Below, one piece after another: positions 23,484 through 59,746 of a DNA stretch of 64,000 nucleotides. The first letter of the stretch is position 1. Every line of letters starts with the position of its first letter. This DNA is from Litoditis marina (lineage: Eukaryota > Nematoda > Chromadorea > Rhabditida > Rhabditidae). A model generated the notes under the pieces. That model searched no databases. It was not told the origin of the DNA and saw only the letters and a list, made by a program, of their open reading frames with translations. The stretch covers positions 62,001-126,000 of the forward strand of contig CAXIWQ010000389.1 of assembly GCA_964036275.1 (NCBI GenBank). The letters are read 5' to 3'. A program made the translations under genes and the position numbers.

Positions 23484-24788
23484 AATAATAATGAGTTTAT
23501 CAATATTCTGTATAACAATCGAATTAGCGACGAGATGATAACTTATGAATTGATGTCTAAAAACAAAAAAAACTACTAAAACAGCGAGTAATACATAAAA
23601 GTTCATATTATTCAGAAGATAATAAAAGCGATTGAAGGTGAGCACATAGGAACGTGAGATGCCTATTTGCAAGGTGGTAGGGGTTCCCATGATGGGTTAA
23701 TGTGATAACGGAAACCATAGCGATCAAAGTACACATCAGAAACAATTGGGGCAAGATGAGAATGCATTTGATAGCAACCATGGAAAGCACTGTAACGTTC
23801 ACGCATAGGAAACTTACTGCGATGCATGTCATACAAAGCAATAACATATTTCTCAACAAGTTGCAACGATACAGCATCTAGTGCACTGATACGGAGAGAT
23901 AAGGGCTGGGGGTCTGGAGACGGGACACATGTAACAGAAACTTCAACGGGAGGACTTGGTAGTATTTCAGTGGAAACTGTTTCTTGGACAATATGATCAT
24001 CAATATCAGTTGCTATCAACGAAGTGGGCAGAATAGGAGAAGAAAAACATTCGGGAACAATATTGCGAGCAACATTTCTGGATTGTTCAACTACCTCCAT
24101 TTCTGTTTGGTGGTTGGTGTCGGCTGGATTGGACTGCGTTGTAGTTTGGTCGGTGACCTCAGCTCGAGTGGCGTCTCTTTTCGATTGTCTAGCAATGAAT
24201 CCGGCCTTCCGCTGTTCCGGTGTCTCGAATTTTCGCACATGAAAAGTTGACATAGAAGCATCAGATTTCATTACATTGGAGAGATCAATTAGACGAGGAA
24301 ACGGAACACCATCTTTGATAGAAACTTTGAGTGGACGAGATAAACCATCTTGACGAGGTTTTCCCAAACGGTGGAGAATTGATATACTAGATGGAGAGAT
24401 AGGCACCAAATTGAAAATTGCATTCACCTTTCTCTTTGTTGTGGAATCCTCTGGTAGACCATAAATAGTGAGACATCGACGATCGTTGAAATGGTGTAGT
24501 TCGGATTGAATAAGGGTGGGTAGAGATTGAGTCAGATTGTCGATTTTGGAGTTGAGTGTTTTGATTTCACTCAAAATGGTGGAAAAATGGGTTCGAGATG
24601 GTACCATTTTTGGACGAGGCGAGGGCATGATGAGACGAGGCGAGGGCATGATGAGACGAGGCGAGGGCATGATGGACGAGGCGAGGGCATGATGGACGAG
24701 GCGAGGGCATGATGGACGAGGCGAGGGCATGATGGACGAGGCGAGGGCATGATGAGAGGCGAGGGCATGATGAGGCGAGGGCATGATG
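23484..24788 (-). mobile_element. Retroposon-like ORF element, copy 1 (intact)
   Basis: A 1.3-kb non-satellite insert in satA. Read on the minus strand it starts with a minisatellite (24788-24612), then one open frame, about 180 bp of untranslated sequence and an (ATT)n tail at 23484-23492 where satA resumes. A simple-repeat 3' tail is typical of non-LTR retroposons, but no reverse transcriptase is present. The same two satellite junctions occur around the copy at 39090-56231, so the copies share one insertion event. I could not find a clean target-site duplication within the satellite. Confidence 0.65.
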
Positions 24789-39020: not shown

Positions 39021-39089
39021 GTCAATTGGCCTTCGTACAATCTTCAGATTGACCTGTGAAAACTTCGAAATCCGGCCGATTCAATATCA
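39015..39089 (-). repeat. Inverted satA fragment at 5' junction of ORF element copy 2
   Basis: Starts AGGTCAATTGGCC and runs reversed to GATTCAATATCA, where the minisatellite begins. It is the mirror of 24789-24853, apart from the outer edge. Confidence 0.85.
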
Positions 39090-39698
39090 TCATGCCCTCG
39101 CCTCATCATGCCCTCGCCTCTCATCATGCCCTCGCCTCGTCCATCATGCCCTCGCCTCGTCTCATCATGCCCTCGCCTCGTCTCATCATGCCCTCGCCTC
39201 GTCCAAAAATGGTACCATCTCGAACCCATTTTTCCACCATTTTGAGTGAAATCAAAACACTCAACTCCAAAATCGACAATCTGACTCAATCTCTACCCAC
39301 CCTTATTCAATCCGAACTACACCATTTCAACGATCGTCGATGTCTCACTATTTATGGTCTACCAGAGGATTCCACAACAAAGAGAAAGGTGAATGCAATT
39401 TTCAATTTGGTGCCTATCTCTCCATCTAGTATATCAATTCTCCACCGTTTGGGAAAACCTCGTCAAGATGGTTTATCTCGTCCACTCAAAGTTTCTATCA
39501 AAGATGGTGTTCCGTTTCCTCGTCTAATTGATCTCTCCAATGTAATGAAATCTGATGCTTCTATGTCAACTTTTCATGTGCGAAAATTCGAGACGGCGGA
39601 AGGCCGGATTCATTGCTAGACAATCGAAAAGAGACGCCACTCGAGCTGAGGTCACCGACCAAACTACAACGCAGTCCAATCCAGCCGACACCAACCAC
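39090..39698 (+). pseudogene. ORF element copy 2, 5' part (frameshifted, then split)
   Basis: Same protein as the 23663-24820 ORF, in the opposite orientation, with six minisatellite units instead of nine. The frame is intact from Met at about 39209 (MVPSRTHFS) to HVRKFET. It is then shifted by an 8-bp deletion at about 39593 (GAGACGGCGGAAGG against GAGACACCGGAACAGCGGAAGG in copy 1) and stops at 39619. Coding sequence continues in another frame to AACCAC at 39698, where the 15.9-kb insertion interrupts it. The remainder is at 55599-56051. Confidence 0.8.
39693..39698. repeat. Target-site duplication AACCAC, left
   Basis: AACCAC directly precedes the AG end of the 15.9-kb element and recurs directly after its other end (55599-55604). 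The intact paralogue has a single copy (24110-24115, GTGGTT on +), which proves a 6-bp duplication. Confidence 0.95.
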
Positions 39699-39896
39699 AG
39701 TAGTGTATGTATCTCCCCAGTCCAACGTCCCCCAGTTGTCCAATTCCTCAGAGACATTCTTAGACCCCAAAATGTCCCCCAGCTAGCCACTGGCCCCGTC
39801 TAGCCATGCTTCCAATTAGATCAGCTGGCCCTCGGTTAGCCACAATCACTTTCGAAATTTCGAAAATATTGCGAAATATTTTCTGAAGACTTTTTT
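39699..39896 (+). repeat. Terminal inverted repeat, left
   Basis: About 198 bp pairing with 55401-55598. The first 58 bp are identical and the rest has scattered substitutions. It contains several CCCCAG motifs and ends GAAGACTTTTTT. Confidence 0.95.
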
Positions 39897-39937
39897 CTAC
39901 CTTTTTTTCTTTTTTTCGAAAATTTAATAGTTTTCAC

Positions 39938-39959
39938 CTCAAACTTGGGTAATTGAACC
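39938..39959 (-). ncRNA. SL1-like spliced-leader exon with GT donor, left arm
   Basis: Read on the minus strand this is GGTTCAATTACCCAAG followed by TTTGAG: 21 of 22 bases of the nematode SL1 leader, with C for T at position 5. The next bases are GTGAAAAC, so a GT donor follows at the position of the SL RNA splice site. About 10 nt further is AAATTTTCG, like an Sm site but much closer than in a full SL RNA. There is no clear second stem-loop. It could be a truncated SL RNA gene, a captured leader, or a leader-like regulatory site. The sequence match is secure; function is not. Confidence 0.55.
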
Positions 39960-41232
39960 AGATTGAAAAATGTACACATACGTATCTAGTACAGGTTGAC
40001 ACTATAAGGTATCTAATAGGTTCGTAATCCGTGTACAGGTAAGTTTTTCTCACGTGAGGTCCCCTGATTGTTCTGGCCTGAACTGGTTCCTAGCCCTCCG
40101 CGATGTCACCCAGATCGGTCAGGGAAGCCCCCGAAACGTACCCCAGTTTAGTCAACCAGGATGGTCCGCAAGTAGGGGGAAGTAACCAGTAGGGTCCCCA
40201 GAAAAAAAATTCAAAAATTCAAAATTTTTTTTATTTATGTCACCTAATGTAGTCAAACAAAATGTCACCAAATTAAGCCGAATATCTAGTCTACGATTAT
40301 CGATAAGTTCGAAAAAAATTCATCGAAAGCTGTAAACTGTTCGAAAGTGTTTTCAAAGCTATACTTCAATCCAATTTCGACTGATTTTCTCGCCTGTACT
40401 GAACATGATATACACTTGGGAAGACTTCCACTCATATTTTCTACATTCTTGTTTCGAAGATCATGCAGAAATCGAAACTGCTTCAGACGTGCAAGTTAAA
40501 TGTTTGCGGACTGTAATTCACAGTCTCTTACACGAAAGTCTTAGAAGTTAATAAAGAAAATAATGTTGAACGAATGTGTAACAGCAGTACATTAACCAAA
40601 CTCAGTCACTACTCATAGGGAAAAGCAACAAAAAAGGTGTAAGTGCAACAAACATTTAAGAGGCAATCAACAATAGTGAAGAGAATGAGATAATGCAAAC
40701 AAATCTAATAAAATACAGGAATACCATGCAAGAGAATATGTGGAGAATTCAAGAAATTTTATCTTGGGTTCATTAAATCCATCATATAGGGATCAAATTT
40801 ATGCTTACGCGCTACCTTATACTGGATCGGAGTTGGGTTCGTCGTTCAGTACTCCTTTCACAATAATATTGTTTTAGGCTTTCCGAAGTCGGCTTTTTTT
40901 TGTAAAAAAAAACTCTAGGAACTCGGCCACCTCTGGCAATAATTCATCGTTGGTGTTATTTATACCTTCTTCACATCCTTCTATATATATTCCACAAATA
41001 CCTCTAAATGCATCCAACATTCTGAAGCTTCGCGTGTATTTCCAGGACCATCACAATCGAAACCAATATGACTCATAATTTTTTTCAAAGCTCATATTTA
41101 ACGAAACTAGATCTGACTCCTTTCCTGGTTGCTCTTCTGCCTACAAATTGAATTGAAATTACAATCGGTTACTGTGGGTGACCTTGATGTATGATCTTGT
41201 CACTCAACTTTTTTCCACCTCCGTTCCGGTCT

Positions 41233-41589
41233 TCACCAACTAAGTGTTCCTTTTTTGTATGAACCAACAGTCCATTTTTGCATGTGAGTCAAGAGTTGGC
41301 ATCCTTCTTTTTCCCCTCCAAATCTACGAGTATCCATAAGAAAGCTGTGGAATAAGAGAGACAAAATTTCCGGCATGCGACTGTTTTTTTTTTTCATCAG
41401 TAGACACCAAATTTCCAACTGCGTAGTTCTGATTTTCGGAATGTTGCAAAGAGGGCGGGACATTGGACTGCGGCTGACCAATGTTGTATTCACGAAGTTA
41501 TTATGAGGGAGCGAAGGGTGCATGGCCAAGACCTGTGATTGCTCACTTACCTCACGAAATGAACAGCTCAGAAATACGCAAAGAGTCAT
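41233..41589 (-). CDS. Hypothetical ORF in left arm, 118 codons
   Basis: Starts MTLCVFLSCSFRE and ends KWTVGSYKKGTLSW. No recognised domain. The right-arm counterpart (53717-54080, +) keeps the start MTLCVF and the end region but has stops and indels. The reading frame is therefore open in one arm only, which suggests decay of a once-shared gene or exon. A GTAAGTGAG string follows the first 14 codons, so splicing is possible. Confidence 0.25.
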   Translation of the reverse strand: MTLCVFLSCSFREVSEQSQVLAMHPSLPHNNFVNTTLVSRSPMSRPLCNIPKIRTTQLEIWCLLMKKKNSRMPEILSLLFHSFLMDTRRFGGEKEGCQLLTHMQKWTVGSYKKGTLSW

Positions 41590-41909
41590 TTAACACATTT
41601 CCATCACCAAGCTATAGCGTCTTTCTTTGAGTCTGAGTTGAGAAAGTCGCTTCCCTACGCTGTTACTATGAAAATTTATCATGCTGATCTACGTGTCGAG
41701 ACTCAACCATATAAAATAAAGTGGATTTGTGGAAGGATTGATCGTTTCAAGTGAATATTTGCAGCGTTTCAGCTCAGAAGATCTCGGTGCATGTGGTATT
41801 TCTTAGTCGCGAGAACGCTATGGCCTGGACGCTCTCAAGTCAGTTGCGCAAAGGCTTCGTCATCACCATTTTCAATACTATGTTCAGCTGTACCAACGCT
41901 TTCCAGCTG

Positions 41910-42221
41910 CTAAGAAGTATTCACTAACATGGGAATACAATACCAATAAAACTGGCTATTGCCTGTTTCAACCATAAATTCGGTGTATCTACGTTCAGAC
42001 CGGGGGCTTTTGTCAAGAAAACGTGTCGAGGACGTCTCAAACGGTATGTCAGTTAACAGCGTCATAAATGCTCGAACGTTTGCCATCACTGTCGTCGCAA
42101 GGAATGCACTGGAACTTGTATTCTCTCCGAACTGCCACGAGACTTTCCACATACAAGGGTGATATTGAAGAGTTGTTGTGTCTTCAATAAATATTTTACC
42201 TCTATTCTGTTTTTGATACAT
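41910..42221 (-). CDS. Hypothetical ORF in left arm, paired with 53006-53410
   Basis: 103 codons beginning MYQKQNRGK, with YHPCMWKVSWQFGEN and SPRSERRYTEF. The same protein is encoded in the right arm at about 53066-53410 with around ten replacements and a break at 53215. Conservation of peptide sequence in both arms suggests this was coding. I do not recognise the family. A copy of the eight-copy dyad motif lies about 230 bp upstream in both arms. Confidence 0.35.
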   Translation of the reverse strand: MYQKQNRGKIFIEDTTTLQYHPCMWKVSWQFGENTSSSAFLATTVMANVRAFMTLLTDIPFETSSTRFLDKSPRSERRYTEFMVETGNSQFYWYCIPMLVNTS

Positions 42222-42452
42222 ATACAGAACTACGACTACACTGGATGGAACTGATATCTTGGGAAAAAAACCATTTCACATTCAATCATAGTTAGTGAAA
42301 ACTCTTCTCGTTCTTTTTTCATGAGCGCACGTCAACACCGCTTGAGTTATTGAGCACGACAGTAACTATAACCTTTTCAACTCAGAAACAGAATCTCTAC
42401 ATCACAAAAAAACTCAAGCACGTAAAAATTCAATACCAACACTAAACCATTC

Positions 42453-42486
42453 GGAAACGGAGAGGTCACGTCAAGTGCCCTCGTAG
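42453..42486 (+). repeat. Dispersed dyad motif, copy 1
   Basis: 34 bp from GGAAACGGAGAGGTCAC through CTCGTAG, with an internal CAC-N5-GTG dyad. It mirrors the copy at 52743 and lies upstream of the 42221-41910 ORF. Confidence 0.75.
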
Positions 42487-43771
42487 AGTACGTTTCAACA
42501 CTATTTTGCCAATTGAGTCAGAACCATGAAGGGAGGTCGGCAACCTTAATTTTTCGATTTAGCCTTCTCGACTAAGTTTTAGGAATGAGAGTGTACGTGA
42601 GTATAATAAATAGGCAGACATGAAATTTACAATGCACCGCGGAACGCGACGCATCTAGTGTCGTTAGCCGCGAAAAAACCACTAGTGCTATTGAATGAGC
42701 TCCAATGTGTTCAATATTTCGAGAATTTTTATCCACTTTATAGTGTTCCAATATGATCTTTTCTTTATGGTCACCCAGGTATCATTATCTCTGCACATTC
42801 CAAATATCACCACCCTGGACGTAGGGCGAATTGCCACGACCCTTTTTTCTTTGTACGGGTAAAAAGTTACACGACTGCGCATAACAATCCCAAAATATTA
42901 AAAAAAAAACATTCTTTTGTGACTTTTGCGCCATCAAGCTCGTGAAAGCGAAATGTATCAGATGCCATGAAGACTTGTGGTAGTTATAGAAAGTGGCCTC
43001 CAGCTAAGGACACCACACAGAAAATGTAATTACATTGAGAATACACCAGGTTGGTCTCGACAAATCCCATGTCAGTTTTATATATATGCACAATTTAATT
43101 TCCACCACGAAAAAATCGGTATATAACTTGCTATACGAAAACATAAAAAAATGTGTGTAGCCCAGAATTCGATGAGAAAAACACTCTAAAGTCAGTATAA
43201 TACACGGAACCGAAGAACAGCAGAAGACCTTGAAGTCAGTTATGAACAAACTGCGACACAACTCAGTTTATTGTGAATTAACTTATGATTTTTTTGAATA
43301 TTTATTGTGATTGTTCACATCTTTTTGGCAAGAAAACCAAAATTAGGGCTGAAAGACAAATAAGATTGAGAATATTCATCGAATCTATGATCCAAATCAG
43401 AGAAGGAAATATTTAAACACCAGTAGCACCCCCTGCACTCTCTCATTTTATTACGTACTCTCACCATCACACCCTTTTTGACGGCAACGGGTTTTTTCTC
43501 TCTAGATCTTTGAGTATTGAATGCCTGTGAAGAATCTCTATGACTCTCCAGTCTCTCCATACTCTCCTGATTCTCCCCCTGCAAAAAAATCTCTAACTAT
43601 CGAGCAATCTCTTCACGAAATGTTATGGAAACCCCCCACTATGGTTGAGTTTCGCATAATTACGAAGCAGAATGGAGATATATTCATTTTAACACTATAG
43701 TTCAATAGTTTTCATATAAAATACGCAATACTTACACACGCACTACTTCAATTTACAACATATAAACTTTT

Positions 43772-43805
43772 GGAAACGGAGCGGTCACAACAAGTGATCC
43801 CGTAG
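43772..43805 (+). repeat. Dispersed dyad motif, copy 2
   Basis: GGAAACGGAGCGGTCAC followed by AACAAGTGATCCCGTAG. It mirrors copy 7 at 51280 and lies about 190 bp upstream of the 43584-43315 frame. Confidence 0.75.
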
Positions 43806-43922
43806 TGCCCATTTTTCATTCATCCTCTCTTGCTTTTACTGCGACCAACTATCAAACACATAGTTTTGATACACAAATAACAAGCCATATCTAGAATATT
43901 CATTTGGGATATTATACCTAAG

Positions 43923-44312
43923 TTACAAATTTGGTATCAAAGTTTGCTTTTTTCTCGGATGAAGTAGCAACGACTTAAGTTTTTCTCCTTTCACAGGAAA
44001 ACCATCCTGTACAGTTGCATTCAATTCTTCTTTTCGCGATGAAGTAGCAACCGTGGGATTTCCTCCATCTTTCTGGGTCTTCGAAATGAGAGTGTTTACA
44101 AGATTATTGGAATCAGCATGTATACGTTTGAGATAAGAAGGATGGTTCTTAAAGCGAGTAATAAAGTCTTTGTGGGAGAGATTCAACGAAGGGACTTCTA
44201 TTCCGGAATGGTGTGCGTGTATGTGAGATAGTCTTCTCTGTTTGTATGAGGAAAACTTGTCACATAGGGTACAGCTATGCAGGACAGAGAGAATGCATAA
44301 CCGACCGCTCAA
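43923..44312 (-). CDS. Hypothetical ORF with one C2H2-like zinc finger
   Basis: 129 codons. Residues about 14-35 contain C-x2-C-x12-H-x3-H (CTLCDKFSSYKQ..., then HIHAH), a C2H2 zinc-finger spacing, preceded by LCILSVLHS. The rest is basic (KTQKDGG, SSRKEEL, HPRKKQ). The right-arm counterpart near 51080-51180 keeps only the C-terminal part, so this frame is not conserved as a whole. It could be a fragment of a spliced gene or a chance frame. Confidence 0.25.
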   Translation of the reverse strand: MSGRLCILSVLHSCTLCDKFSSYKQRRLSHIHAHHSGIEVPSLNLSHKDFITRFKNHPSYLKRIHADSNNLVNTLISKTQKDGGNPTVATSSRKEELNATVQDGFPVKGEKLKSLLLHPRKKQTLIPNL

Positions 44313-44481
44313 AACAGATTAATATATTTAAACGATCAAACAGATTTGACCAGTTGTATTGATGTATTATTTCAACTGCGTTCGATTCCATTACATGAAC
44401 GCATTAAATGTAATCACGGAAGCATTCAAAACTGTATAATCTCGTATCAAAACCGTTTCAATGCATGCCTAAAGACTCAAA

Positions 44482-45019
44482 ATGCAATTTCCGAAACCTA
44501 AAATGCATTTTCCTAGAGCTATCGACTATTTTCCACGTGTCAGTAAACACTTTTACAGCCCAGAAATTTACTATAATTATCTCCCTCCTATTTTGGTCAT
44601 TGCAATGTGTGATGTGAAAATTCTCTTCCACATTACCAACGGAAGAGTGCCTAGATTTTTCTCTGTACGCACACTTTCAAATGTAAAATTTTGGAAATAA
44701 AATGACTTTGACAGATGTATAGATTAGTCTATATACACAAAAACTGCACATTTCCACTCTGATCTTTCTAATAGTAGTACGAATAGCACATTTCTTAATG
44801 AATATCGTGCCAATGTATGCCCTAAAAGTGAAAATTCACTTCCCAATAGTAAGAATGCACTTTCTCGAAGCTATTGAGCACTTTCTCAAAGCTATCGAGC
44901 ACTTTCAGAAGGTAATAATACACTCTCACATCCCAAAAAATAATTATAATTCGTTTCTTTCGCCCCATATATGGGTACTTTTGATGTGTAATTCCATGGA
45001 GTGTTTCTCAAAAAAGTGA
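44482..45019 (+). repeat. Diverged repeat pair with 21-bp internal units
   Basis: Two related blocks (44482-44660 and 44798-45000) share CACTTT...TATAATT...CTCCT/TTTC...GTGTGAT/GTGTAAT signatures. In the second, GCACTTTCTCGAAGCTAT-like units recur three times and would encode AIEHFLKAIEHFQK. The counterpart is at 50436-50880 on the opposite strand. Confidence 0.55.
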
Positions 45020-45726
45020 TATTATCCTTTTGTACACCATGAATTCGCAATAATTCGTTCTTTAGGCTCTCATATAAGAACAAATTTGTATGTGTAAGGC
45101 CATGAAATATGCTTGAAAAGTAATAATACACAGTCGTAGACTGAAAATTCCCTACAACCCATTTTTTTGCACCATGTATGACCATTTTCAATGTATAAGG
45201 TATTCATTTGTTCAATGTATAAGGTATTAGCCGTGTGGAAAAAAACCAGAAAGCATATTCTAGAAACAAGAGTATGTATCAGGAAAACTACTAGGTTCCC
45301 CACAATCCTCAGATGAGTTGCAGAAATGTCTTAAAATCTACCTTTTTCTATGAACGCTCAGTATATACCATGAATCTAGTGTCCTACATCGGAAACCCTT
45401 TGAGAGTTACACCGATATATCTATCCACTAGAGAAAGCGTGCTGGAGAACTTTTGATAATTTCATCCTCAAAACTCATTGTAAGAGCGTTTTTTTTCAAG
45501 GAACACAGCAGAGAAAACATGGTGATACATGTGCTTGAAAGTATGATTCGATGACATTCCTTGAGAGTGTCTTAAACTACTTTGAAAACTCAAAACATAG
45601 GAAAATTACAACTTTCTTAGTTGCAAACCAGTTGATAAGTCGCATAGAAGACATGAGAAAATTCAAATGCATAAGAACAATTCCTTACTTCATAAATACA
45701 AACGTTACTTCCATCACCAAATTACC

Positions 45727-45759
45727 GGAGTGGAGAGGTCACAACAGGTGATCTCGTAA
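45727..45759 (+). repeat. Dispersed dyad motif, copy 3
   Basis: GGAGTGGAGAGGTCAC followed by AACAGGTGATCTCGTAA. No mirror copy, because this part of the arm has no right-hand counterpart. Confidence 0.7.
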
Positions 45760-46317
45760 TGTAAGGTTCTTCTTCTTATTGACAGAGATGTATGTTTCTC
45801 CGGTATGGTTTTAAAGAATGGAGCTAAGAATTCGGACTTTTTCCATTGGTATTCAAGAACGAGCATCTCGTAGATACTTCAGAGATACCCCAGTATTAAT
45901 CGACTATTTAGGTTCATATGTTTTCAAGCACTAGAAAGTCAGTCACATTTCCGTAGATTTGAAAATAGCTCCGCTATTCTATAATAGATTATAGTCTTCC
46001 AGGTGTAAAAATCCTCTACGACACACGTTCAAGTCGTTTTTCTGTATAAAATTTTCTCTCTAAAGTATCATACAATTAGTCTTTCGCCAAAGAAATCCTG
46101 AAATCGATCAATCAACGAAGAGAAGAACTGAACTTATCTTGATTCTCTGTAGAACATTCTATCTCAAAATATTATTATTCAGTTGATCGTGTATCAAAAA
46201 AGTATGAAATTAATGAGTGAAAAGATGAATGACACATCATAGCCATTAGTGGTATACCTACCTCCACAAATTTCAAGGAAGTCCATGAAAATTTAATACA
46301 AATACAAGAAAAATGCA

Positions 46318-46724
46318 CTTTCCGTAAGTGAAAATGTACAAATTACTGATATTTACTAGGAATCCACCATAATACTCACTTTTCACACCTAATTAATGGA
46401 AATCACTCCCGAAAGTTTAGATATTTCACATAAGTATTTCGCTCCCTCTGTACTGATTCGTATTCAAGTTTTAAATCTACCTGTCTGGTCTACCCCTTTT
46501 CTGTTTGTCTGTTTTGAGACTTGTATGAAACTTGTAGAAAAAGTTGAGACTTGTAGAAACGTACACTCGAGGGCACTAGGCGTGACCTCTCCGTTTCCGA
46601 ATGGGTTGGTGTTGAAAGTAGGGAGTGTTATTGATGCTTAATACATTTTTAAATGTATTTCACCTTTTTCTGTCTTCTATTTCCTCTTTTTTATCTTTTT
46701 GTCTTTTATTCACTTCGTATCGCG
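46318..46724 (+). repeat. Partial copy of the 49448-50338 fold-back arm
   Basis: Direct-orientation homologue of 49848-50230, from CCGTAAGTGAAAATGTAC to TTCACTTCGTAT. It contains a 30-bp duplication around GAAACTTGTAGAAAAAGTTG that the other copies lack. Confidence 0.85.
46566..46598 (-). repeat. Dispersed dyad motif, copy 4
   Basis: The reverse strand reads GGAAACGGAGAGGTCAC then GCCTAGTGCCCTCGAG; it is identical to copies 5 and 6. Confidence 0.75.
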
Positions 46725-46989
46725 CGGAGCGCGAAGCGCTCTGCGTGAGTTGTCTTTGGTTTGGCCATTGCGGACTCGTTTTTTCCTTTTAATTAACAAA
46801 AAGCTTCAAATATAATCTTTTTTCGAAAACTAAAAGGAGAGAACGTTAGAGAATCACGAATTGAACATTGTGTGAAAATTTCAGCCAAATCGGAATATTT
46901 TCGCCTGAGTTATGGTTTCGTGTCGTTGTTGAAAAGTTCCGCCGTAATTCGTCCCTCGTCCCTCGTCCCTCCTCCCTCGTCCCTCGTTA
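46725..46989. other. Core left segment: GC hairpin and CCTCGT simple repeat
   Basis: Begins with a GC-rich stretch holding a perfect GAGCGC-GAA-GCGCTC hairpin (46736-46750). AT-rich sequence with no ORF follows, then CCTCGT-type simple repeats (46952-46987) into which the TA-flanked element is inserted. Confidence 0.7.
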
Positions 46990-47696
46990 GGGTTGTTAGA
47001 ATTGGAATTGGAATTGGAATTGGAATTGATAGAATCGAGATAATCATCCAAAAGAATTGCAATTTCAATTCTTTTTGTCTGTCGAAAAGAATTGGAATTG
47101 CAATTCCAATTCTTTTGTATGTCGAAAATGGTTGGAATTGCAATTCCAATTCTTTTGTATGTCAAAAAATTTCTGGAATTGCAATTCCAATTCTTTCGTA
47201 TATCAAAACAACTGGAATTGGAATCGGAATTGACTTGATTTTCTCTCAGAATTGATTCAGAATTGATTTACAATTTCATGCTGTTTTTCCTTGTTCATTA
47301 CCAAATTACCATTGTTCCTTATGTCTCTCGTTCAATGGAACCAAAGTGAACATTGTTTATCTTCGTTTTTTGAAATAAAAAACTGGCATGAAGTTGGAAA
47401 CACAGTCAATTCTAATCAATTCCAATCAATTCCAATCAATTCCAATGGAATTGGAATTGAAAATCTGAGATTTCGAGGAATTGATCGGAATTGGAATTGG
47501 AATTGAGCAGTTTTTGAAAATGTAAAAGAATTGGAATTGGAATTGAGTGGTTTCGCGAATTGCAAAAGAATTGGAATTGGAATTGAGTGGTTTTCGAGAA
47601 TTGAAAAAGAATTGGGATTGGAATTGAGTGGTTTTTGAGAAACGAAAAAGAATTCGAATTGGAATTGACTTGATTTTTGGAATTGATTAACAACCC
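46990..47696. mobile_element. MITE-like element of 707 bp with TA target duplication
   Basis: Ends GGGTTGTTA and TAACAACCC, flanked on both sides by TA and then by CCTCGT repeats, so the insertion split a simple-repeat tract. The interior is mostly GGAATT-rich sequence (AATTGGAATTGG runs at 47000-47030, 47400-47600). TA duplication and short TIRs fit a Tc1/mariner-type MITE. There is no transposase; open frames here are simple-repeat translations. Confidence 0.7.
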
Positions 47697-47755
47697 TATC
47701 CCTCGTCCCTCGTCCCTCGTCACTCGTCCCTCACGGATTCTGTCCGCATCGTAGT

Positions 47756-48840
47756 GGAAAAACTACTGAACCAATTTGGCTGAAATTTGGAACATATATT
47801 CTATGGCAAAAGTTAGCTCGTCGCGCCAAGTATGAAAAGTATATCTGATCTCTGGCGCCGGGCGCGGCCGCCAATAGGCGCCAAAAACCACTATTGGAAA
47901 AACTACCGAATCGATTTAGCTGAAATTTGAAACATGAGTTCTAATACAAAATTTAGCCCGTCGCGCCAAATATGATATGTACAGCTCCTCATTGGCGCCG
48001 GGCGCGGGCGCCAATAGGCGCCAAAAACCACTATTGGAAAAACTACCGAACCGATTCAGCTGAAATATGAAACATGAGGTATAATGCAAACGTTAGCCCG
48101 TCGCGCCAGATATGAGATGAATACATCATCATTGGCGCCCGGCGCTGGCGCCAATAGGCGCCAAAAACGGCAAAACACTATTTATCGTCAACTTAAATGT
48201 TGAACACTAATATAAATTGAATAGTTTGGTGGAAAGTGTGAAAGTCTTTTTCAAAAACTGAAATTTTTCTTCTGGCGCTCAAACCAGGCGCCAGATGGCG
48301 CCAAAACCCAAACTCACGACAGCGTTAATGGAATCGTCTGAAATTCGGTACACTAAATAACTGTCACATGGCAAGTAAAATGCTCAATCTGAAAATCCAA
48401 AAAGTTTTGTTGGCACTGTGCGCTGGCGCCAATTGGCGCCAAAGTTGGAAAAATATCAGTTATCGTCAATCAAACTGTTCCAAGTTAACAGATATTGAAT
48501 ATTCCAATGTGAAATATAGATCAACAAATTCAAAATCTAATTTTATCTTCTGGCTCGGAACAGACGCCAAATGGCGCCAAAACAAAAACACACGAAACTG
48601 ACAATTGAATAGTTTGAATATTGCTCCAATCAGTAATTGACACATGTAGTGTGTACTGGTAGCTCAAAAACCTAGAGAATTTCGTTTCGTTCTGGCGCCA
48701 GACGCGTGTGCCCATTGGCGCTGGAACGAAAAACAAGAAAGTTTCAACATGAAGGTTTTTGATGTGGTATCGGAAATAATGGCTATATTGTAAGTGATTT
48801 GGTGTTTCTAATTGTAGATTTGTCAATGGCGCCAATCCCG
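47756..48840 (+). repeat. 140-bp tandem repeat with GGCGCC dyads
   Basis: Three clear units start GGAAAAACTAC at 47756, 47896 and 48036, exactly 140 bp apart. Each ends with TGGCGCC...GGCGCCAATAGGCGCC clusters. Five more diverged units continue at about 48276, 48423, 48566, 48693 and 48829, recognised by GGCGCC-type pairs. In an AT-rich element these GC dyads are the strongest compositional feature. Confidence 0.85.
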
Positions 48841-49081
48841 TTCGCTTATCGCCGCTAAAAGCGGCGTACATGTAAATCGGAACTTTTAGCGTTTTTGTTC
48901 AGTTGTTGATAGTCACAGAGCCAGCAACTTGCGTTATATTACAACACCAGCAATTTTATGGTCTGCATTCGGCTTAGTGCACACACAAAACTGAGATTTC
49001 CATAATAATATCACAAGATCCACTCTGTGAATAGGCAACATATGAAGTTGTAGTAGTACAACTAGCAAAAAAAGGACAATT
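48841..49081. other. Unassigned spacer in element core
   Basis: Includes a small CGCCGCTAAAAGCGGCG hairpin at about 48850-48867. Otherwise AT-rich with no ORF or repeat that I recognise. Confidence 0.6.
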
Positions 49082-49446
49082 AGTAAAAAGTGGGGGAACC
49101 AACAAATGTGTGAGTTGTGTTTGGTTCGACCTCGATATCAGCAAAAAGTGAACGATACGAATTGCTGTGATACTGTAGCAGAAGTATTCTGCAAAAATAG
49201 AACAATACAAATGTTGCACAATGGTTCACAACGCACGCATGTCGTCACAGTACACATGAAATACCCTTCGGCAATTTCTGAAACATCACGCGGGCTTCGT
49301 GAACCATTGTGCAACATTTGTATTGTTCTATTTTTGCAGAATACTTCTGCTACAGTATCACAGCAATTCGTATCGTTCACTTTTTGCTGATATCGAGGTC
49401 GAACCAAACACAACTCACACATTTGTTGGTTCCCCCACTTTTTACT
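49082..49446. mobile_element. Near-perfect hairpin element of 365 bp
   Basis: Arms of 148 bp (49082-49229 and 49299-49446) appear perfectly complementary around a 69-bp loop. The ends are AGTAAAAAGTGGGGG and CCCCCACTTTTTACT, flanked by AATT on both sides. This is the structure of a fold-back MITE. ORFs on the two strands begin identically because of the symmetry and are not genes. Confidence 0.85.
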
Positions 49447-49679
49447 AATTCTCCTTGGATTTCCTGTCTGGAATTTTTTTAAATCAGAAATTACAGTTTC
49501 GATATATTTTCTCTTTTCTGAAGTATTGCGAAAGAGTTATAGTGAATTTCGAGCAAAATACGAAGTGAATAAAAGACAAAAAGATAAAAAAAAGGAAATA
49601 GAAGACAGAAAAAGGTGAAATACATTTAAAAATGTATTAAGCATCAATAACACTCCCTACTTTCAACACCAACCCATTC

Positions 49680-49712
49680 GGAAACGGAGAGGTCACGCCT
49701 AGTGCCCTCGAG
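49680..49712 (+). repeat. Dispersed dyad motif, copy 5
   Basis: In the left arm of the fold-back; identical in sequence to copies 4 and 6. Confidence 0.75.
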
Positions 49713-50072
49713 TGTACGTTTCTTTTCAATGCATACAAGTCTCAAAACAGACAAACAGAAAAGGGGTAGACCAGACAGGTAGATTTAAAACTTGAATACG
49801 AATCAGTACAGAGGGAGCGAAATACTTATGTGAAATATCTAAACTTTCCGTAAGTGAAAATGTACAAATTACTGATATTTACTAGGAATCCACCATAATA
49901 CTCACTTTTCACACCTAATTAATGGAAATCACTCCCGAAAGTTTAGATATTTCACATAAGTATTTCGCTCCCTCTGTACTGATTCGTATTCAAGTTTTAA
50001 ATCTACCTGTCTGGTCTACCCCTTTTCTGTTTGTCTGTTTTGAGACTTGTATGCATTGAAAAGAAACGTACA

Positions 50073-50105
50073 CTCGAGGGCACTAGGCGTGACCTCTCCG
50101 TTTCC
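50073..50105 (-). repeat. Dispersed dyad motif, copy 6
   Basis: In the right arm of the fold-back, inverted relative to copy 5. Confidence 0.75.
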
Positions 50106-51279
50106 GAATGGGTTGGTGTTGAAAGTAGGGAGTGTTATTGATGCTTAATACATTTTTAAATGTATTTCACCTTTTTCTGTCTTCTATTTCCTTTTTTTTT
50201 ATCTTTTTGTCTTTTATTCACTTCGTATTTTGCTCGAAATTCACTATAACTCTTTCGCAATACTTCAGAAAAGAGAAAATATATCGAAACTGTAATTTCT
50301 GATTTAAAAAAATTCCAGACAGGAAATCCAAGGAGAATACGAAGTGAATAAAAGACAAAAAGATAAAAAAAAGGAAATAGAAGACAGAAAAAGGTGAAAT
50401 ACATTTAAAAATGTATTAAGCATCAATAACACTCCCTACTCCATGGAATTACACATCGAAAATGCCCATACTTGGGGGGAAAGAAACGAATTGTAATGAA
50501 TTTTTGGGATATGAGAGTGTATTATGGCCTTCTGAAAGTGTTCGATAGCTCTGAGAAAGTGCTCAATAGCTTTGGGAAAGTGAATTTTGACTATTGGGAA
50601 GTGAATTTGAACTTTTAGAGTGTACACTTGCACGATATTCATTCAGAAATGTACGATTCGTACCATTATTAGGAATATCGGAGTGGAGATTTTTTGTATA
50701 TAGACAAGTTCATACATCTTTCAAAGTCATTTCATTCAAAATTTAAATTCGAAAGGATGCCTACAGAGAAGCACTCTTCCGTGGAGGAAATATATTCATC
50801 TCACACATTGTAATGACCGAAATAGGAGGGAGATAATTATAGTGAATGTCTGGTCTATAATAGTGTATTATGACCCGTTGGAAGTAGTGGGTAGCAGTAG
50901 CCATGTTCACCTTGTATTTTGAGTTTTCAGGCATGCATTGGTACACTTTCAGTATGAGATGTTTGAATGGTTTCGTGGTTACCATGATCGCAGTGTTGGA
51001 ATTGAGCAGAATTGAAAAAACTACATTAATACAAATATTTTGCTACTACACCGGAAAGGAAAGATGTGCCTGCAACTGTACTGAATGATTTTCCTGAGAA
51101 AAAAAGAACTAAAATCGATGTTACTTCATCTGAGAAGAATACTATTTTTGATACCAAATTCGTAACTTATGTATACTATTCCAAATAAACATTCTAGATA
51201 TGGCTTGTTTTTTTGGGCAATTGAAAACTCTGTGTTTGATAGTTTGTCTCAGTAAGAGAGAATGAATGAAAAACGGACA

Positions 51280-51313
51280 CTACGGGATCACTTGTTGTGA
51301 CCGCTCCGTTTCC
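51280..51313 (-). repeat. Dispersed dyad motif, copy 7
   Basis: The reverse strand reads GGAAACGGAGCGGTCAC and continues to CCCGTAG. It mirrors copy 2, with the 34 bp appearing identical while the surrounding arm has diverged. Confidence 0.75.
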
Positions 51314-52742
51314 GAAAGTTTATATGTTGTAAATTGAAGTTAAGCGTTTGTAAGTATTGCGTATTTTATATGAAAACCATTGAACTATAGTGTTAAAATA
51401 GATATATCTTGTTAAAATCAGTATATCTTCATCACGTTTCGTAATCATGCGAAAATCAATCATAGTGGGGGTTTCAATAACATTTCGTGAAGAGATTGCT
51501 GGATAGTTAGAGATTTTTTCCAGAACGAGAATTAGGAGAGTATGGAGAGAGTAGAGGATCATAGAGATTCCTGACAGGCATGAAATATTCAGAGATCTAG
51601 GACCAATTTCGATGCTTTCGCTAAAAATATGTAATCATCACAATACATATGAGGTAATTTACAATATACTGAGTCGTATCACCGTTTGTTCCTATCCGGC
51701 TTCAAGATCTTTTGCTGTTCTTCGGTGTAGAGCTTTTCTATATTAAATCTTTAATGATTGACTTTAGCGCGTTATTCCATTGATCTATGGGCGTCGTACA
51801 CATTTTTTATACTTTCATATTGAGTTTAGGTTATCTGTGTGATGTCCTTGGCAGAAGCCAACTTCTATGCCTTTCTAGGCATTTTACACTCTTCTCAAGT
51901 ATCTAAACCTAGCGTTCCGCGCGCCAAAACAGACTGGAACATGTGAACCGTATGCAAAATAGGTTGATTAGTTTGCATGAAGAATAGTAATTATGAGTTT
52001 CTCTCGAGCAGCTCTTTCACATTTACTTTCCTTTCGGTCCCCTTTAACTGGGGTTCTATAGAGTGGCGGTAGATAAAAACAAGACATATTCAGGGAAAAG
52101 ACAGTACGTACTTTCTGCCACACGATGGCAAATTTCGGCTTTTTTGGAGTGTGATTTTCAATTTAAAAGAGGAGTCTACCACATTTTGTACCTGATACAC
52201 ATGTAAACCACAAGTCTTCACGGCATCATTCAATTCGACGACAGTGTCGGTACTTTTAAGTTACTAAGCCCCCGATCTCGCGGTAAATTATTTTTGAAAT
52301 CACGGTGTGAGATGTAAAGACATTTCTAACATTGCAAACATAAGGTGCGTATAACTACGACTGAAACCCAAAAATTAATGGCAGCGAGTACACAGACATG
52401 CATTCACGACGTTTTCGTGGATCTATGGCTGATACATCTCGCTTTCACGAGCTTGCAGGCGCAACAATCAGTGTCTGTTGAAACTTCCCAAGAATGTTTC
52501 GCAAAACTGTGTGATCGATACGCGTACAACTAAATAAGGTCGTGACAGTTCGCCCAAGGTGAACTGATATTAAAAATGTGCTGAGATAATGATACCTGAG
52601 CGTCACGTCTGTTCATTTACGTTTATAGTCACGTACACTCTCATGCCTAAAACTTAGTCGAGAAGGCTAAATCGAAAAATTAAGGTTGCCGACCTCTCTT
52701 CGTGGTTCGGACTCACTTGGTGAAATAATGTGGAAACGTACT

Positions 52743-52776
52743 CTACGAGGGCACTTGATGTGACTTCTCCATTCCC
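52743..52776 (-). repeat. Dispersed dyad motif, copy 8
   Basis: The reverse strand reads GGAATGGAGAAGTCAC, then ATCAAGTGCCCTCGTAG. It mirrors copy 1 and lies about 230 bp upstream of the 53006 ORF. Confidence 0.7.
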
Positions 52777-53005
52777 GAATGGTTTGATGTTGGTATTAAA
52801 TTTATATAAGCTTGTGTTTTTTTGTGATGTAGAGATACTGTTTCTGAATTGATAAAAGCTCATAGTTACTGTCTTTCGTGATTTTTAAATGGATAAATAT
52901 CGTGCTATCGTGCTCGATAACTCAAACGGTGCAATGGTTATTGACGTGCGCTCATGAAAATAGAACGACAGGAGTTTTCACTAAGTTTTCACTAGCTATG
53001 ATTGA

Positions 53006-53410
53006 ATGTGGTATTACTTTTTGCGCGAGATATTAGTTTCATCAAGTGTAGTCGTAGTTCTGTATATGTATCAAAAACAGAATAGAGGTAAAAAATTTAT
53101 TAAAGACATAACAACTCTTCAGTATCACCCTTGTATGTGGAAAGTCTCGAGGCAGTTCGGAGAGAATACAAGTTCCAGTGCATTCCTTGCGACGACAGTG
53201 ATGGCAAACTTTTGAGCATTTAAGACGTTGCTAGCTGACATACCGTTTGAGACGTCCTCGACACGTTTTCTTTACAAAAGTCCCCGTTCTGAACGTAGAT
53301 ACACCGAATTTATTGTTGAAACAGGCAATAGCCAGTTTTTGGAAGCATTGGTGTTGTATTTCCATGTTAGTGAATACTTCTTAGCAGCTGGAAAGCGTTG
53401 GTACAGTTGA
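53006..53410 (+). pseudogene. Right-arm counterpart of the MYQKQNRGK ORF, broken
   Basis: Encodes MYQKQNRGK through TTVMANF, then a stop at 53213-53215. The conserved continuation (LADIPFETSSTRFL, SPRSERRYTEF, VETGNSQF) runs in a new frame to 53410. An upstream extension (MWYYFLREIL) is unique to this arm. Family not recognised. Confidence 0.4.
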
Positions 53411-54889
53411 ACATAGTATTGAAAATGGTGATGACGAAGCCTTTGCGCAATTGACTTGGGAGCGTCCAGGCCATAGCGTTCTCGCGACTAAGAAATACCA
53501 CATGCACCGAGATCTTCTGAACTGAAACGCTGCAAATATCCATCTGACTTGGAACGATCAATCCTTTCACGGATCCACTCTATTTTAGATGGTTGAGTCT
53601 CGACACGTAGATCAGCATGATACATTTTCATAGTAACAGCGTAGAGAAGCGACTCAATTCTCAACTCCGACTCGAAGAAAGACGCCATAACTTGGTGATG
53701 AAGATGTGTTAAATGACTCTTTGCGTATTTATGAGCTGTTCATTTCGTAAGTGAAGATATTACCAATCACAGGTCTTGGCCACGCACCCTTCGAACCCTC
53801 ATGGTATTTCCGTAAATGGAATGAGCATTCATCAACCCAGTCCAAGGTCCCGCCCTCTTTGCAACATTTCGAAAATTAGAACTACCAAATTTGTGATTTC
53901 GTGTCTACTGTTGAACAAAACACACTATGATATTCACTAGCGAACACGTTTTGAATTTGTCTCTCTTGTCCCGGAGCTGTCTTACGAATACTCGAAGATT
54001 TGAAGGGGGAAAAAGAAGGATGCCAATTTTGACTCACATGCAAAAATAGACTGTTGTTTCTTATAAAAAAAAGGAACACTTAGTTGGTGAAGACCAAAGC
54101 GGAGGTGGAGAAAAGTTGAGTGACAAGATCATACATTAAGGTCAGCCACAGTAATGGATTGTGATCTCAATTCATTTTGCAGACAGAAGAGCAACCAGTA
54201 AAAGGAGTCAAAATTAGTTCCGTTAAATATGAGCTTTGACAACGGTCTTATTGATTTCGATTGTGATGGTTTCGAAAACACATGTGGAGCTTCAGAATGT
54301 TGGAAGGATTTAGAGAAAATTGTGTATGTAAGAATGTAAAGAAAGTATGAATAATACCTACGATAAATTATTGCCAGAGGTGGCCGAATTTCTAGAGTTT
54401 TTCACGAAAAACCCGACTTCGGAAAACCTAAAACAATATTAATGTGAAAGGAGTACTGAACGACGAACCCAACTCCGATTGTAGCGCGTAAGCTTAGATT
54501 TGATCCCTATATGATGGATTTATTCCATCTTCTCTTCCATGCGTATTTCCGTATTTTATCTGTTTGCATTATCTCATTCTCTTCACTATTGTTGATTGCC
54601 TCTTAAATATACTTGACTTAGTGACTTGACTTTTGAACTTTCGAATTTTTTTTCTGGGGACCACACTGGTTACTTCCCCTATTCGTGGACTATCCTGGGT
54701 GACTAATCCGGGGGGCTTTTCGAGGGCTCCCCTGACCAATCTGGGTGATATCGCGGCGGGCTAGGAACCATTTCAGGCCTGAACAATCTGGGGACATAAC
54801 GTGAGAAAAACTTACCTGTAAACGGATTACGAAACTATTAGATGCCTGATACTGTCAACCTGTACTAGATACGTATGTGTACATTTCTC

Positions 54890-54914
54890 GGTTCAATTAC
54901 CCAAGTTTGATGAG
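54890..54914 (+). ncRNA. SL1-like spliced-leader exon with GT donor, right arm
   Basis: GGTTCAATTACCCAAG then TTTGA, the same SL1 match and same position-5 change as the left arm. Here a TGAG follows, then GTAACA, so a GAG/GTAACA donor is preserved three bases further on. GAAATTTTCG follows at a similar distance. Both copies point outward from the element centre. Compare with 39938-39959. Confidence 0.5.
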
Positions 54915-54949
54915 GTAACACGAGAACTATGAAATTTTCGAAAAAAATG

Positions 54950-55400
54950 AAATTGATCCGATTGGGGGAATGAGTAATCTGGGAGACCTGATCCGATGGG
55001 GGGACTGTTGGGTGATCCGATTGGGGACATGAGCCTTTTAGGTAGTGGCTGAGGAGGTGATCCGATTGGGGAAAGAGAACGTCTTCGCCATCGAGATATA
55101 GGATCAAATTCGTATTAAAATTAAATTTTTGTAGAATAAAATGTTTGTCTGTGTTCTTGGAGAAAGAAAAAAAGGGGCCAGCTGATCTGATTGGGGGTTT
55201 TCTGGGTGAGCCAGTTGGGGGACTCTAGGGTGATCCGATTGGGGACATGAGCCTTTTAGGTAGTGGCTGAGGAGGTGATCCGATTGGGGGAAGAGAACGT
55301 CTCCGCCATCGAGATATAGGATCAAATTCGTATTAAAATTAGATTTTTGTAGAATAAAATGTTCGTCTGTGTTCCTGGAAAATAAATAAAAATTTGAGAA
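54950..55400. repeat. Right-arm-only tandem repeats with TGATCCGATTGGGG
   Basis: TGATCCGATTGGGG or close variants recur at about eight sites. A larger block containing ACATGAGCCTTTTAGG is duplicated 218 bp apart (55027 and 55245). The left arm lacks this roughly 450-bp stretch, so it arose after the arms separated. Confidence 0.8.
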
Positions 55401-55598
55401 AAAAGTCTTCAGAAAATATTTCGCAATATTTTCGAAATTTCGAAAGTGATTGTGGCTAACCGGGGGGCCTGCTGATCCAATTGGAAGCATCGCTAGCCAG
55501 GGGCCAGTGGCTAGCTGGGGGACATTTTGGGCTCTAAGAGTGTCTCTGAGGAATTGGACAACTGGGGGACGTTGGACTGGGGAGATACATACACTACT
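55401..55598 (-). repeat. Terminal inverted repeat, right
   Basis: Reverse complement of 39699-39896, ending ACATACACTACT. The first mismatch from the tip is at base 59. Confidence 0.95.
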
Positions 55599-55604
55599 AA
55601 CCAC
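55599..55604. repeat. Target-site duplication AACCAC, right
   Basis: Second copy of the 6-bp duplication, directly after the CT end of the 15.9-kb element. Confidence 0.95.
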
Positions 55605-56051
55605 CAAACAGAAATGGAGGTAGTTGAACAATCCAGAAATGTTGCTTGCAATATTGTTCCCGAATGTTTTTCTTCTCCTATTCTGCCCACTTCGTTGATA
55701 GCAACTGATATTGATGATCATATTGTCCAAGAAACAGTTTCCACTGAAATACTACCAAGTCCTCCCGTTGAAGTTTCTGTTACATGTGTCCCGTCTCCAG
55801 ACCCCCAGCCCTTATCTCTCCGTATCAGTGCACTAGATGCTGTATCGTTGCAACTTGTTGAGAAATATGTTATTGCTTTGTATGACATGCATCGCAGTAA
55901 GTTTCCTATGTGTGAACGTTACAGTGCTTTCCATGGTTGCTATCAAATGCATTCTCATCTTGCCCCAATTGTTTCTGATGTGTACTTTGATCGCTATGGT
56001 TTCCGTTATCACATTAACCCATCATGGGAACCCCTACCACCTTGCAAATAG
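55599..56051 (+). pseudogene. ORF element copy 2, 3' part
   Basis: Continues the coding sequence interrupted at 39698, from NHQTEMEVVEQS to the same stop as copy 1 (PSWEPLPPCK). About 150 codons with only two replacements seen against copy 1 (R to C at VARNIV and at MRERYS), so the two copies separated recently. The frame here is intact but has no start of its own; an open frame from 55527 is fused to TIR sequence. Confidence 0.8.
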
Positions 56052-59200: not shown

Positions 59201-59447
59201 CAATCGGCCGGATTCCGAAGTTTTCACAGGTCAATCTGAAGATTGTAAGAAAACCAATTGTTTCATGGTAGTTGTTACCATAAGTGGGAAAATAGTCCAA
59301 TTGAGTAGTAACAGTGTCCTAAAGGTTTTTCATGTATACAACCTCTGTATCGAAACTCAGAAAGTTCGAATTTTGGCCGCGCTGATATTGAATCGGCCGG
59401 ATTTCGAAGTTTTCACCGGTCAACCTGAAGATTGTAAATAGGTCAAT
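56232..59447 (+). repeat. satA array, forward, right flank
   Basis: About 17 forward monomers. The first ones mirror 23100-23483 closely, including CCAGATTCCGAAG and CAGGATAATCTG variants, consistent with an inverted duplication. Frame breaks and the TAG-carrying subfamily limit ORFs to under 370 codons. Confidence 0.95.
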
Positions 59448-59685: not shown

Positions 59686-59697
59686 CCTCCCTTTCTT
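59686..59697 (-). other. Polypurine tract
   Basis: On the element strand AAGAAAGGGAGG directly abuts the 3' LTR, the usual plus-strand primer position. Confidence 0.85.
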
Positions 59698-59746
59698 GAG
59701 AACTAACATTTGGGGAGATGTGAAACAATTGGATACAAAATGATCG

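What the first reader, a model, noticed from the sequence alone, without database searches (positions are those of the whole stretch)
39699..55598. A 15.9-kb Polinton-like element that is almost entirely a giant inverted repeat
Seen: termini AG...CT, 58 bp of perfect and about 198 bp of near-perfect TIR, exact 6-bp duplication AACCAC, total 15,900 bp. Known: this combination fits Polintons/Mavericks. Odd: no Polinton core gene is visible, and the two halves pair as arms of about 5-7 kb with partly shared decayed ORFs. Published Polinton TIRs are usually hundreds of bases. This may be an undescribed non-autonomous or fold-back class of Polinton.
Basis: partly seen in the sequence, partly recalled or inferred. 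Interest (0 to 1): 0.9.

Follow-up and report, generated by a model that had tools for sequence, protein, structure and literature searches.

The report
Polinton transposons built as giant palindromes
A virus-like jumping gene in what is probably a roundworm genome exists in many copies built as two mirror-image halves of about 7,000 letters, and in most copies examined the halves match almost perfectly, as if each new copy were made by copying one half twice.

Summary
Window 39699-55598 is a 15.9-kb element with AG...CT ends, a 221-bp TIR at 92.8%, an exact AACCAC duplication and an empty-site paralogue in the window. It is a rearranged, hybrid member of a large family. Related copies at other loci are near-perfect palindromes of 13.6-15.2 kb (two longer, 26-28 kb), with arms of about 7 kb around a ~100-bp loop. 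A probe over the loop hits 20 loci. The arms keep only the two ends of the Polinton polymerase gene. Gene-bearing Polintons in the same genome share the end sequence, in one case 97.4% over 272 bp. In 8 of 11 copies the two arms are sisters on a tree; the window copy is an exception. Palindromes arose more than once: a second lineage (17.5 kb) has integrase and ATPase in both arms, no detected polymerase and a sister with a full-length polymerase frame; a third (13.0 kb) is a loopless palindrome with polymerase in both arms. My reading: these are Polinton derivatives in which one end was replaced by an inverted copy of the other; complete Polintons move them, and each new copy is made from a single arm. 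These mechanism steps are inferred.

The parts
39693..39698 (.). left target-site duplication AACCAC
   Evidence: empty site
39699..39917 (+). left terminal inverted repeat, AGTAGTGTATG tip
   Evidence: pairs with 55378-55598, 92.8% over 221 columns
39699..46720 (+). left arm, ending at the edge of the family's central loop
41566..42122 (+). remnant of polB N-terminus, in three pieces (aa 24-220 of the separate N-terminal ORF of copy G; aa 84-197 of G polB)
   Evidence: tblastn
43209..43298 (+). remnant of polB C-terminal tail (aa 1148-1177 of G polB)
   Evidence: tblastn
46721..49447 (.). 2,727-bp insertion between left arm and loop, possibly a separate element
49467..49557 (-). copy 1 of the family's asymmetric central loop, 95.6% to palindrome B
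50229..50319 (+). copy 2 of the central loop, inverted, 95.6% to B: a doubled centre around 49893
50320..55598 (-). right arm, from a different sublineage than the left arm
53165..53715 (-). remnant of polB N-terminus in the right arm (aa 9-197 of G polB)
   Evidence: tblastn
55378..55598 (-). right terminal inverted repeat
55599..55604 (.). right target-site duplication AACCAC
24110..24115 (-). single AACCAC at the empty site in the paralogous ORF 23663-24823
   Evidence: coordinates worked out from the alignment

Best explanation
The element belongs to a family of non-autonomous Polinton (Maverick) derivatives built as giant palindromes. SHOWN: Polinton-type ends with 6-bp duplications; TIRs shared with gene-bearing Polintons in the same genome; arms of about 7 kb that keep only the two ends of polB; a ~100-bp loop at the same point in the five copies compared, so this palindrome formed once and has been inherited; arms nearly or fully identical within most copies examined, while copies differ strongly and mosaically from each other; at least two further Polinton lineages with mirrored arms. 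INFERRED: during extrachromosomal, protein-primed replication one end was lost and replaced by copying the opposite end, with the TIR as the point of annealing (copy-back). The product keeps two functional ends and is replicated and integrated in trans by complete Polintons. At each round the palindrome is rebuilt from one arm, either by fold-back of a single strand at the loop with self-primed copying or by mismatch repair of the long hairpin. The two arms are then identical at birth and diverge afterwards, like the LTRs of a retrotransposon. The window copy is an exception: its unlike arms come from exchange between copies.
For: Family. Exact 6-bp TSDs in 7 of 8 class-1 copies examined (W, A, B, D, E, F, H; not C). 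Arm differences: D 0 in the 6,734 bp outside the loop, H 0 in the 7,042 bp compared, B 9 substitutions outside its loop. Over a homologous segment (860 bp in the window) the arms of A-E and H are 100% identical, while matches to the window's arm elsewhere fall to 73%. Arms are sisters in 8 of 11 copies with both arms in the tree. In 400-bp windows against the other 15 arms of the set the own partner is uniquely best in 16 of 17 (A), 16 of 17 (B), 16 of 16 (D) and 17 of 17 (H), although the best foreign match swings, in D for example, from 72.5 to 98.2%. Loop homology; loop-probe hits. Loss of genes; no PF03175, integrase or capsid match listed inside the 8 class-1 spans (these searches score only the best candidates). 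Helper link: 97.4% over 272 bp. Further palindromes. Sister of class 2 with polB at C18:1852277-1865930.
Against: Arms in W (92.5%), L (97.5%) and J (98.5%) are not identical, so identity at birth is either not universal or can be undone. Sisterhood of W's and L's arms is rejected only modestly (AU p 0.040 and 0.031, groups named after seeing a tree), and K is unresolved. C and E are so close that own and foreign arms mostly tie or the foreign arm wins (C 11 ties and 2 losses of 18; E 7 ties and 6 losses of 18, some because the partner piece was cut). TIRs of one copy being alike is also seen in Galileo (98-100%), so alikeness as such is not special; length and mosaicism are. No replication intermediate was observed. 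Ongoing gene conversion between arms inside the chromosome is not fully excluded. Mobilisation in trans rests on shared ends alone. Copy C lacks 22 bp of its right tip and its flank duplication is longer than 6 bp. D's centre is not among the hits of the loop probe and is only 72-76% alike to the others.
Confidence: 0.6

Rival explanations
1. The arms are kept identical in place by gene conversion between the two arms of a chromosomal palindrome, as in primate Y palindromes (recalled), not at each transposition.
For: Long inverted repeats with a short spacer are good substrates for conversion (general knowledge); most copies examined have near-identical arms.
Against: Arm-private tracts persist: A's left arm is 98.2% to D (221 columns) but 95.4% to its own right arm (241 columns) at 3030-3270; C's left arm is 99.8% to E but 98.7% to its own right arm at 6480-7080. 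B has scattered single differences. W and L keep unlike arms. Arm divergence is graded from 0 upward, as expected for age since insertion.
Confidence: 0.25
2. The inverted repeats grew inside chromosomes by ectopic gene conversion or break-induced copying between TIRs, as proposed for Galileo, with no special role for Polinton replication.
For: Galileo shows TIR extension, 98-100% TIR identity within copies, and chimeric copies, and its authors propose conversion (PMC3573991, passages seen). Chimeric copies seem to exist here too (W, L).
Against: The longest Galileo TIRs are about 1.2 kb at 95%, and its chimeric copies lack matching TSDs. Here arms are 6.5-7.3 kb, D and H differ at no compared site outside the loop, and the hybrid W has a perfect TSD and empty site.
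Confidence: 0.2
3. The window element is a chance nest of two old Polintons in opposite orientation, or an assembly artefact.
For: The window centre is rearranged with a 2.7-kb insertion and a doubled loop; long palindromes can be a sequencing artefact (recalled).
Against: The same mirror structure recurs at unlinked loci with different flanks and their own 6-bp TSDs; five copies share one asymmetric loop; an empty site exists. An artefact would mirror the flanks too, and those seen are not mirrored.
Confidence: 0.03

Closest known systems
Polinton/Maverick self-synthesizing transposons
   Same: AG...CT ends, 6-bp TSD, size class; gene-bearing relatives in the same genome carry polB, rve integrase with chromodomain, and weaker matches to ATPase, C5-type protease and DJR capsid domains; TIR shared
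   Different: Each arm is roughly 38-50% of the element, against a TIR of 339 bp in copy G and hundreds of bases in published Polintons (recalled); class 1 has no core gene except polB remnants
Foldback-like transposons (FB, Galileo, Tetris, Tm1)
   Same: Most of the element is inverted repeat; non-autonomous copies; chimeric copies; variable arm length; TIRs of one copy alike (Galileo)
   Different: Other transposase superfamilies where classified; Galileo TIRs reach about 1.2 kb (PMC3573991, passages), not about 7 kb; Tetris and Tm1 were seen only in a search listing
Teratorn (piggyBac-herpesvirus element)
   Same: Very large virus-derived mobile element with long inverted repeats (PMC6431247, passage)
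   Different: Active transposase of piggyBac type, herpesvirus genes, 41-182 kb
Defective adenovirus genomes in incomplete particles (Daniell 1976)
   Same: Linear protein-primed DNA; incomplete particles carry left-end DNA (PMC5033970, passage). That some are inverted duplications is recalled, not read
   Different: Transient packaging by-products, not inherited transposons with their own lineages

Membership tests
Polinton/Maverick | 6-bp target-site duplication | tested here: met
   7 of 8 class-1 copies, plus G, one class-2 and one class-3 copy; copy C not
Polinton/Maverick | AG...CT termini and TIR | tested here: met
   AGTAGTGTATG tips in W, A, B, D, E, F, G, H and class 2, and at the left end of C; AGTAGTAGACC in class 3
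Polinton/Maverick | TIR shared with gene-bearing Polintons | tested here: met
   C106 end 97.4% over 272 bp to A, with integrase and ATPase matches on C106
Polinton/Maverick | encodes protein-primed polB | tested here: not met
   class 1 keeps only N-terminal and C-tail remnants; no PF03175 match listed in these spans
Polinton/Maverick | encodes rve integrase, ATPase, protease, capsid | tested here: not met
   tblastn of G proteins (E<1e-4) found none in the class-1 pieces. Hence filed as a non-autonomous derivative, not as an autonomous Polinton
Polinton/Maverick | mobilised by Polinton proteins in trans | not testable with these tools
   needs experiment
Foldback-like elements | inverted repeats make up most of the element | tested here: met
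Foldback-like elements | membership of the FB, P/Galileo or Mutator/Tm1 superfamily | tested here: inconclusive
   6-bp TSD and Polinton TIR argue against Galileo, whose TSD is 7 bp; no transposase of those groups was specifically searched for

The most novel reading that the evidence does not exclude
Polintons here pass through a half-genome hairpin: a single arm with a loop is the true replicating unit, copied round its loop into a palindrome before each integration. Palindromic lineages with complementary genes (class 2: integrase, ATPase and capsid without detected polymerase; class 3: polymerase without detected integrase or capsid) then form a split, mutually dependent Polinton, comparable to the two-segment bidnaviruses (recalled).
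Probability: 0.15. Interest if true: 0.92.

Novelty: new variant of a known kind. Interest (0 to 1): 0.8.

Why it matters
How Polintons replicate and move has, to my knowledge (recalled), not been observed directly. If arms are identical at birth, the palindromes are a fossil record of the replication intermediate and point to fold-back or end-copying during protein-primed synthesis. They also give a built-in clock for Polinton insertions, as LTRs do for retrotransposons. Recurrent palindromes with partial gene sets suggest that Polintons generate heritable defective or satellite genomes. Among the papers listed by ten searches (lists cut short) I saw no title or abstract start that describes palindromic Polintons, but the library is partial and the main paper on nematode Polintons (PMC10748475) is not held.

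Tried and rejected
Chance or nested insertion of two elements, and assembly artefact: rejected. A conserved gene in the arms: not supported. Of ORFs of 60 aa or more in H and D, none of 100 aa or more is open over its full length in the other copies; one 68-aa frame of H (arm position 3496-3699, reverse) is open in every copy it matched, and I leave it unexplained. The polB N-terminal ORF open in copy H carries 1-4 stops in the other copies listed and had no database relatives. Pfam on ten more ORFs (eight from arms or the window element, two from G) gave nothing above cut-off. A fully palindromic second class was my first reading of the mirrored integrases; the centre proved to be unique capsid and protease sequence, so class 2 is long-armed, not fully palindromic. 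A mirrored polB pair at C4:52931016-52938477 has a non-palindromic centre. The first extraction of arm segments over-extended some rows and was redone; copy I entered the tree with one arm only, because its other arm matched in fragments. Rfam search of the window and three loci: one tRNA only. Host species: not identified; the nearest named polB and integrase relatives are Caenorhabditis (34% and 50%), though closer unnamed database proteins exist (65% and 75%), so probably a nematode.
Full report
WHAT IS IN THE WINDOW. The window is C397:62001-126000 of a 262-Mb genome in 522 contigs. The element at 39699-55598 begins AGTAGTGTATG and ends CATACACTACT, has a TIR perfect for 58 bp and 92.8% over 221 columns, and is flanked by AACCAC on both sides. 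A paralogous ORF in the same window (23663-24823, reverse strand) has the same flanks with a single AACCAC and no insert. The joined flanks align to it without interruption at the site; the flanks are 97.4% (left, 625 columns) and 98.6% (right, 1,679 columns) identical to the paralogue. Inverted repeats at E<1e-10 cover 9,889 of 15,900 bp, against 0 in each of 10 shuffles of 2-base blocks; the satellite around the element is itself partly inverted, so neighbouring stretches are no clean control. The left arm runs to 46720, the edge of the family's loop. A 2,727-bp insertion (46721-49447) follows, then two inverted copies of the loop (49467-49557 and 50229-50319, 95.6% to palindrome B), then the right arm.

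THE FAMILY. Searches with the window's TIR (27 matches) and with an 860-bp arm segment (42 matches) found related elements at many unlinked loci. I fetched eight in pieces: seven palindromic copies (A-F, H) and one gene-bearing Polinton (G). A (C4:51.74 Mb), B (C18:96 kb), C (C4:34.75 Mb), D (C1:16.1 Mb) and H (C4:12.46 Mb) are palindromes of 13.6-15.2 kb; E (C17:8.58 Mb, 28.4 kb) and F (C4:15.34 Mb, 26.4 kb) are longer copies with internal duplications. Exact 6-bp TSDs: A GACGTT, B CTCGTT, D ACTATC, E GATAAT, F TTTGGG, H GACCAC, and the gene-bearing G ATCGTC. Copy C lacks 22 bp of its right tip and has a longer flank duplication. So 7 of 8 palindromic copies examined, window included, have a canonical TSD.

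IDENTICAL ARMS. Aligning left against right arm: D has no difference until its loop (6,734 bp), H none over the 7,042 bp that the pieces allow, B nine scattered substitutions outside its loop, A a tract of differences around 3.06-3.25 kb and differences at its centre, C differences only from about 6.4 kb inward. In a tree of 39 arm segments (33 different) the two arms of one copy are sisters in 8 of the 11 copies for which both arms were included (A, B, C, D, E, F, H, J); K is unresolved; L and the window copy W are not sisters (AU p 0.031 and 0.040, groups chosen after seeing a first tree, so indicative only). Along the whole arm, in 400-bp windows against the other arms of A-F, H and W, the best foreign match swings widely (D 72.5-98.2%, H 75.9-98.2%), so copies are mosaics. 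Yet the own partner is the unique best match in 16 of 17 windows for A, 16 of 17 (one tie) for B, 16 of 16 for D, 17 of 17 for H and 16 of 21 for F. C (5 of 18, 11 ties, 2 lost) and E (5 of 18, 7 ties, 6 lost) are too close to each other to tell. For the window copy it is 4 of 17 (one tie) from the left arm and 0 of 13 from the right. In A, B, D and H a recombination that made a mosaic is thus present in both arms.

ONE ORIGIN FOR THIS PALINDROME. The centres of A, B, C, D and H contain the same asymmetric loop of about 100 bp; 401-bp centre fragments of A and B match at 95%, A and H at 92.8%; D is more distant (72-76% in its longest matches). A 201-bp probe over B's centre matches 20 loci by my count, the window included; D is not among them, two 50-bp stem matches on C311 are set aside, and some small contigs may be alternative haplotypes. 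Arms of A and B are homologous to within about 40 bp of the centre, and the other pairs of palindrome arms compared over most of their length.

GENE CONTENT AND HELPER. Copy G (C16:24358791-24377936) has a 339-bp TIR at 99.4% and ORFs matching DNA_pol_B_2 (E 1e-41), rve plus Chromo, an ATPase (best E 4e-6, below cut-off), DJR-like domain (E 4e-4, below cut-off) and Peptidase_C5 (E 7e-4, just below cut-off). tblastn of 12 G ORFs against the pieces found in the palindromes only the polB N-terminus (about aa 9-214) and, in A, D, H and the window's left arm, the polB tail (about aa 1143-1177): a polymerase gene with its core deleted. No ORF of 100 aa or more is open over its full length across copies; one 68-aa frame is. 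A gene-bearing Polinton on C106, with integrase and ATPase 99-100% identical to G's, ends in a TIR 97.4% identical over 272 bp to palindrome A and continues inward at 96% to G's left end. That is the main evidence for mobilisation in trans and for exchange between both kinds.

PALINDROMES AROSE AGAIN. Class 2: C16:3001230-3018735 (17,506 bp), tip AGTAGTGTATG, TSD ATGAAG. The arms are identical at all six probes between the end and 3007859 (350 of 350 bases) and in integrase (0 of 1,069 differ) and ATPase (0 of 620). Two of those probes encode parts of the ORF next to G's ATPase, probably the minor capsid protein (that name is recalled; no Pfam match). The centre is unique and carries capsid and protease homologues. 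Two further loci have the same mirrored layout (C16:18.6 Mb, C2:16.3 Mb). No PF03175 match is listed in any of the three. A relative with integrase 99% identical at C18:1852277 does have an ATPase, a capsid gene and a 1,168-aa polB frame downstream. I infer that the polB end of such an element was replaced by an inverted copy of the integrase end. Class 3: C1:3481508-3494506 (12,999 bp), AGTAGTAGACC tip, TSD ACTGTT, one mismatch in 420 bases at seven inner probes, none in the 93 bases at the ends, no loop (0 mismatches in the central 295 bp), polB domain in both arms, no integrase or capsid match listed. A second locus, C3:21.33 Mb, has mirrored polB and a centre palindromic but for 10 of 200 pairs, nine of them within 16 bases of the middle; its ends were not examined. 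Mirrored capsid pairs also occur at C1:6821515-6833257, C16:27.27 Mb and C16:31.41 Mb (coordinates only).

MECHANISM. Shown: architecture, ends, TSDs, gene loss, within-copy identity, mosaicism, recurrence. Inferred: (i) end replacement by copying the opposite end, primed at the shared TIR during linear protein-primed replication; (ii) trans-mobilisation; (iii) rebuilding of both arms from one at each round. In-place conversion is the main rival. It is weakened by arm-private tracts in A and C, by B's scattered differences and by copies that keep unlike arms. For the window copy, the empty-site paralogue is about 98% identical in the flanks, while its arms differ by 7.5% in the tree segment and more elsewhere. 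So the arms were probably already unlike at insertion, with the caveat that paralogues in a tandem array may be homogenised.

KNOWN OR NEW. Works like: a foldback element; built from: a Polinton. It is a non-autonomous Polinton derivative, not an autonomous Polinton, because the core genes were tested and not found. Galileo is the nearest precedent for TIR growth, within-copy TIR identity and chimeras (PMC3573991, passages seen). I saw no description of palindromic Polintons among the papers listed in ten searches of a partial library; the main paper on nematode Polintons could not be read.

Noticed in passing
window 1-39000 and 56400-64000: Much of the window is an array of 189-bp satellite units that stay open as long ORFs and occur in both orientations, with two paralogous ORF copies embedded (23663-24823, and 39053-39619 plus 55515-56051 split by the element).
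   Followed up: partly
window 59903-61969 (-): Retrotransposon gag-like ORF of 688 aa with DUF7083, aspartyl protease and a weak zinc knuckle match.
   Followed up: no
C343:103860-104188: Five units at 65-bp spacing made of the Polinton TIR tip: a satellite apparently born from a Polinton end.
   Followed up: no
C3:1988017-1988172: A 156-bp mini-palindrome made of two TIR pieces joined directly, tips outward.
   Followed up: no
L031 2168-2884 (C16:24360567-24361283): Gene-bearing copy G carries an open 239-aa second copy of the polB N-terminus at its opposite end, about 50% identical to its polB: possibly an older end-duplication.
   Followed up: partly
L027 9454-9535: A tRNA gene lies about 75 bp beyond the right end of palindrome E.
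   Followed up: no
C446:50892-57028: Another contig carries the window's left arm at 99.9-100% but with different spacing downstream: alternative haplotype or rearranged duplicate.
   Followed up: no
L021/L022 (copy C centre): Copy C's centre contains extra inverted copies of loop sequence outside the main loop, somewhat like the doubled centre of the window copy.
   Followed up: partly
C106:6599-24813: A gene-bearing Polinton whose two ends match different TIR variants, suggesting end exchange with palindromes.
   Followed up: partly
L033 (copy H arm positions 3496-3699, reverse): A 68-aa frame is open in every other copy it matched; its relatives were not searched for.
   Followed up: no
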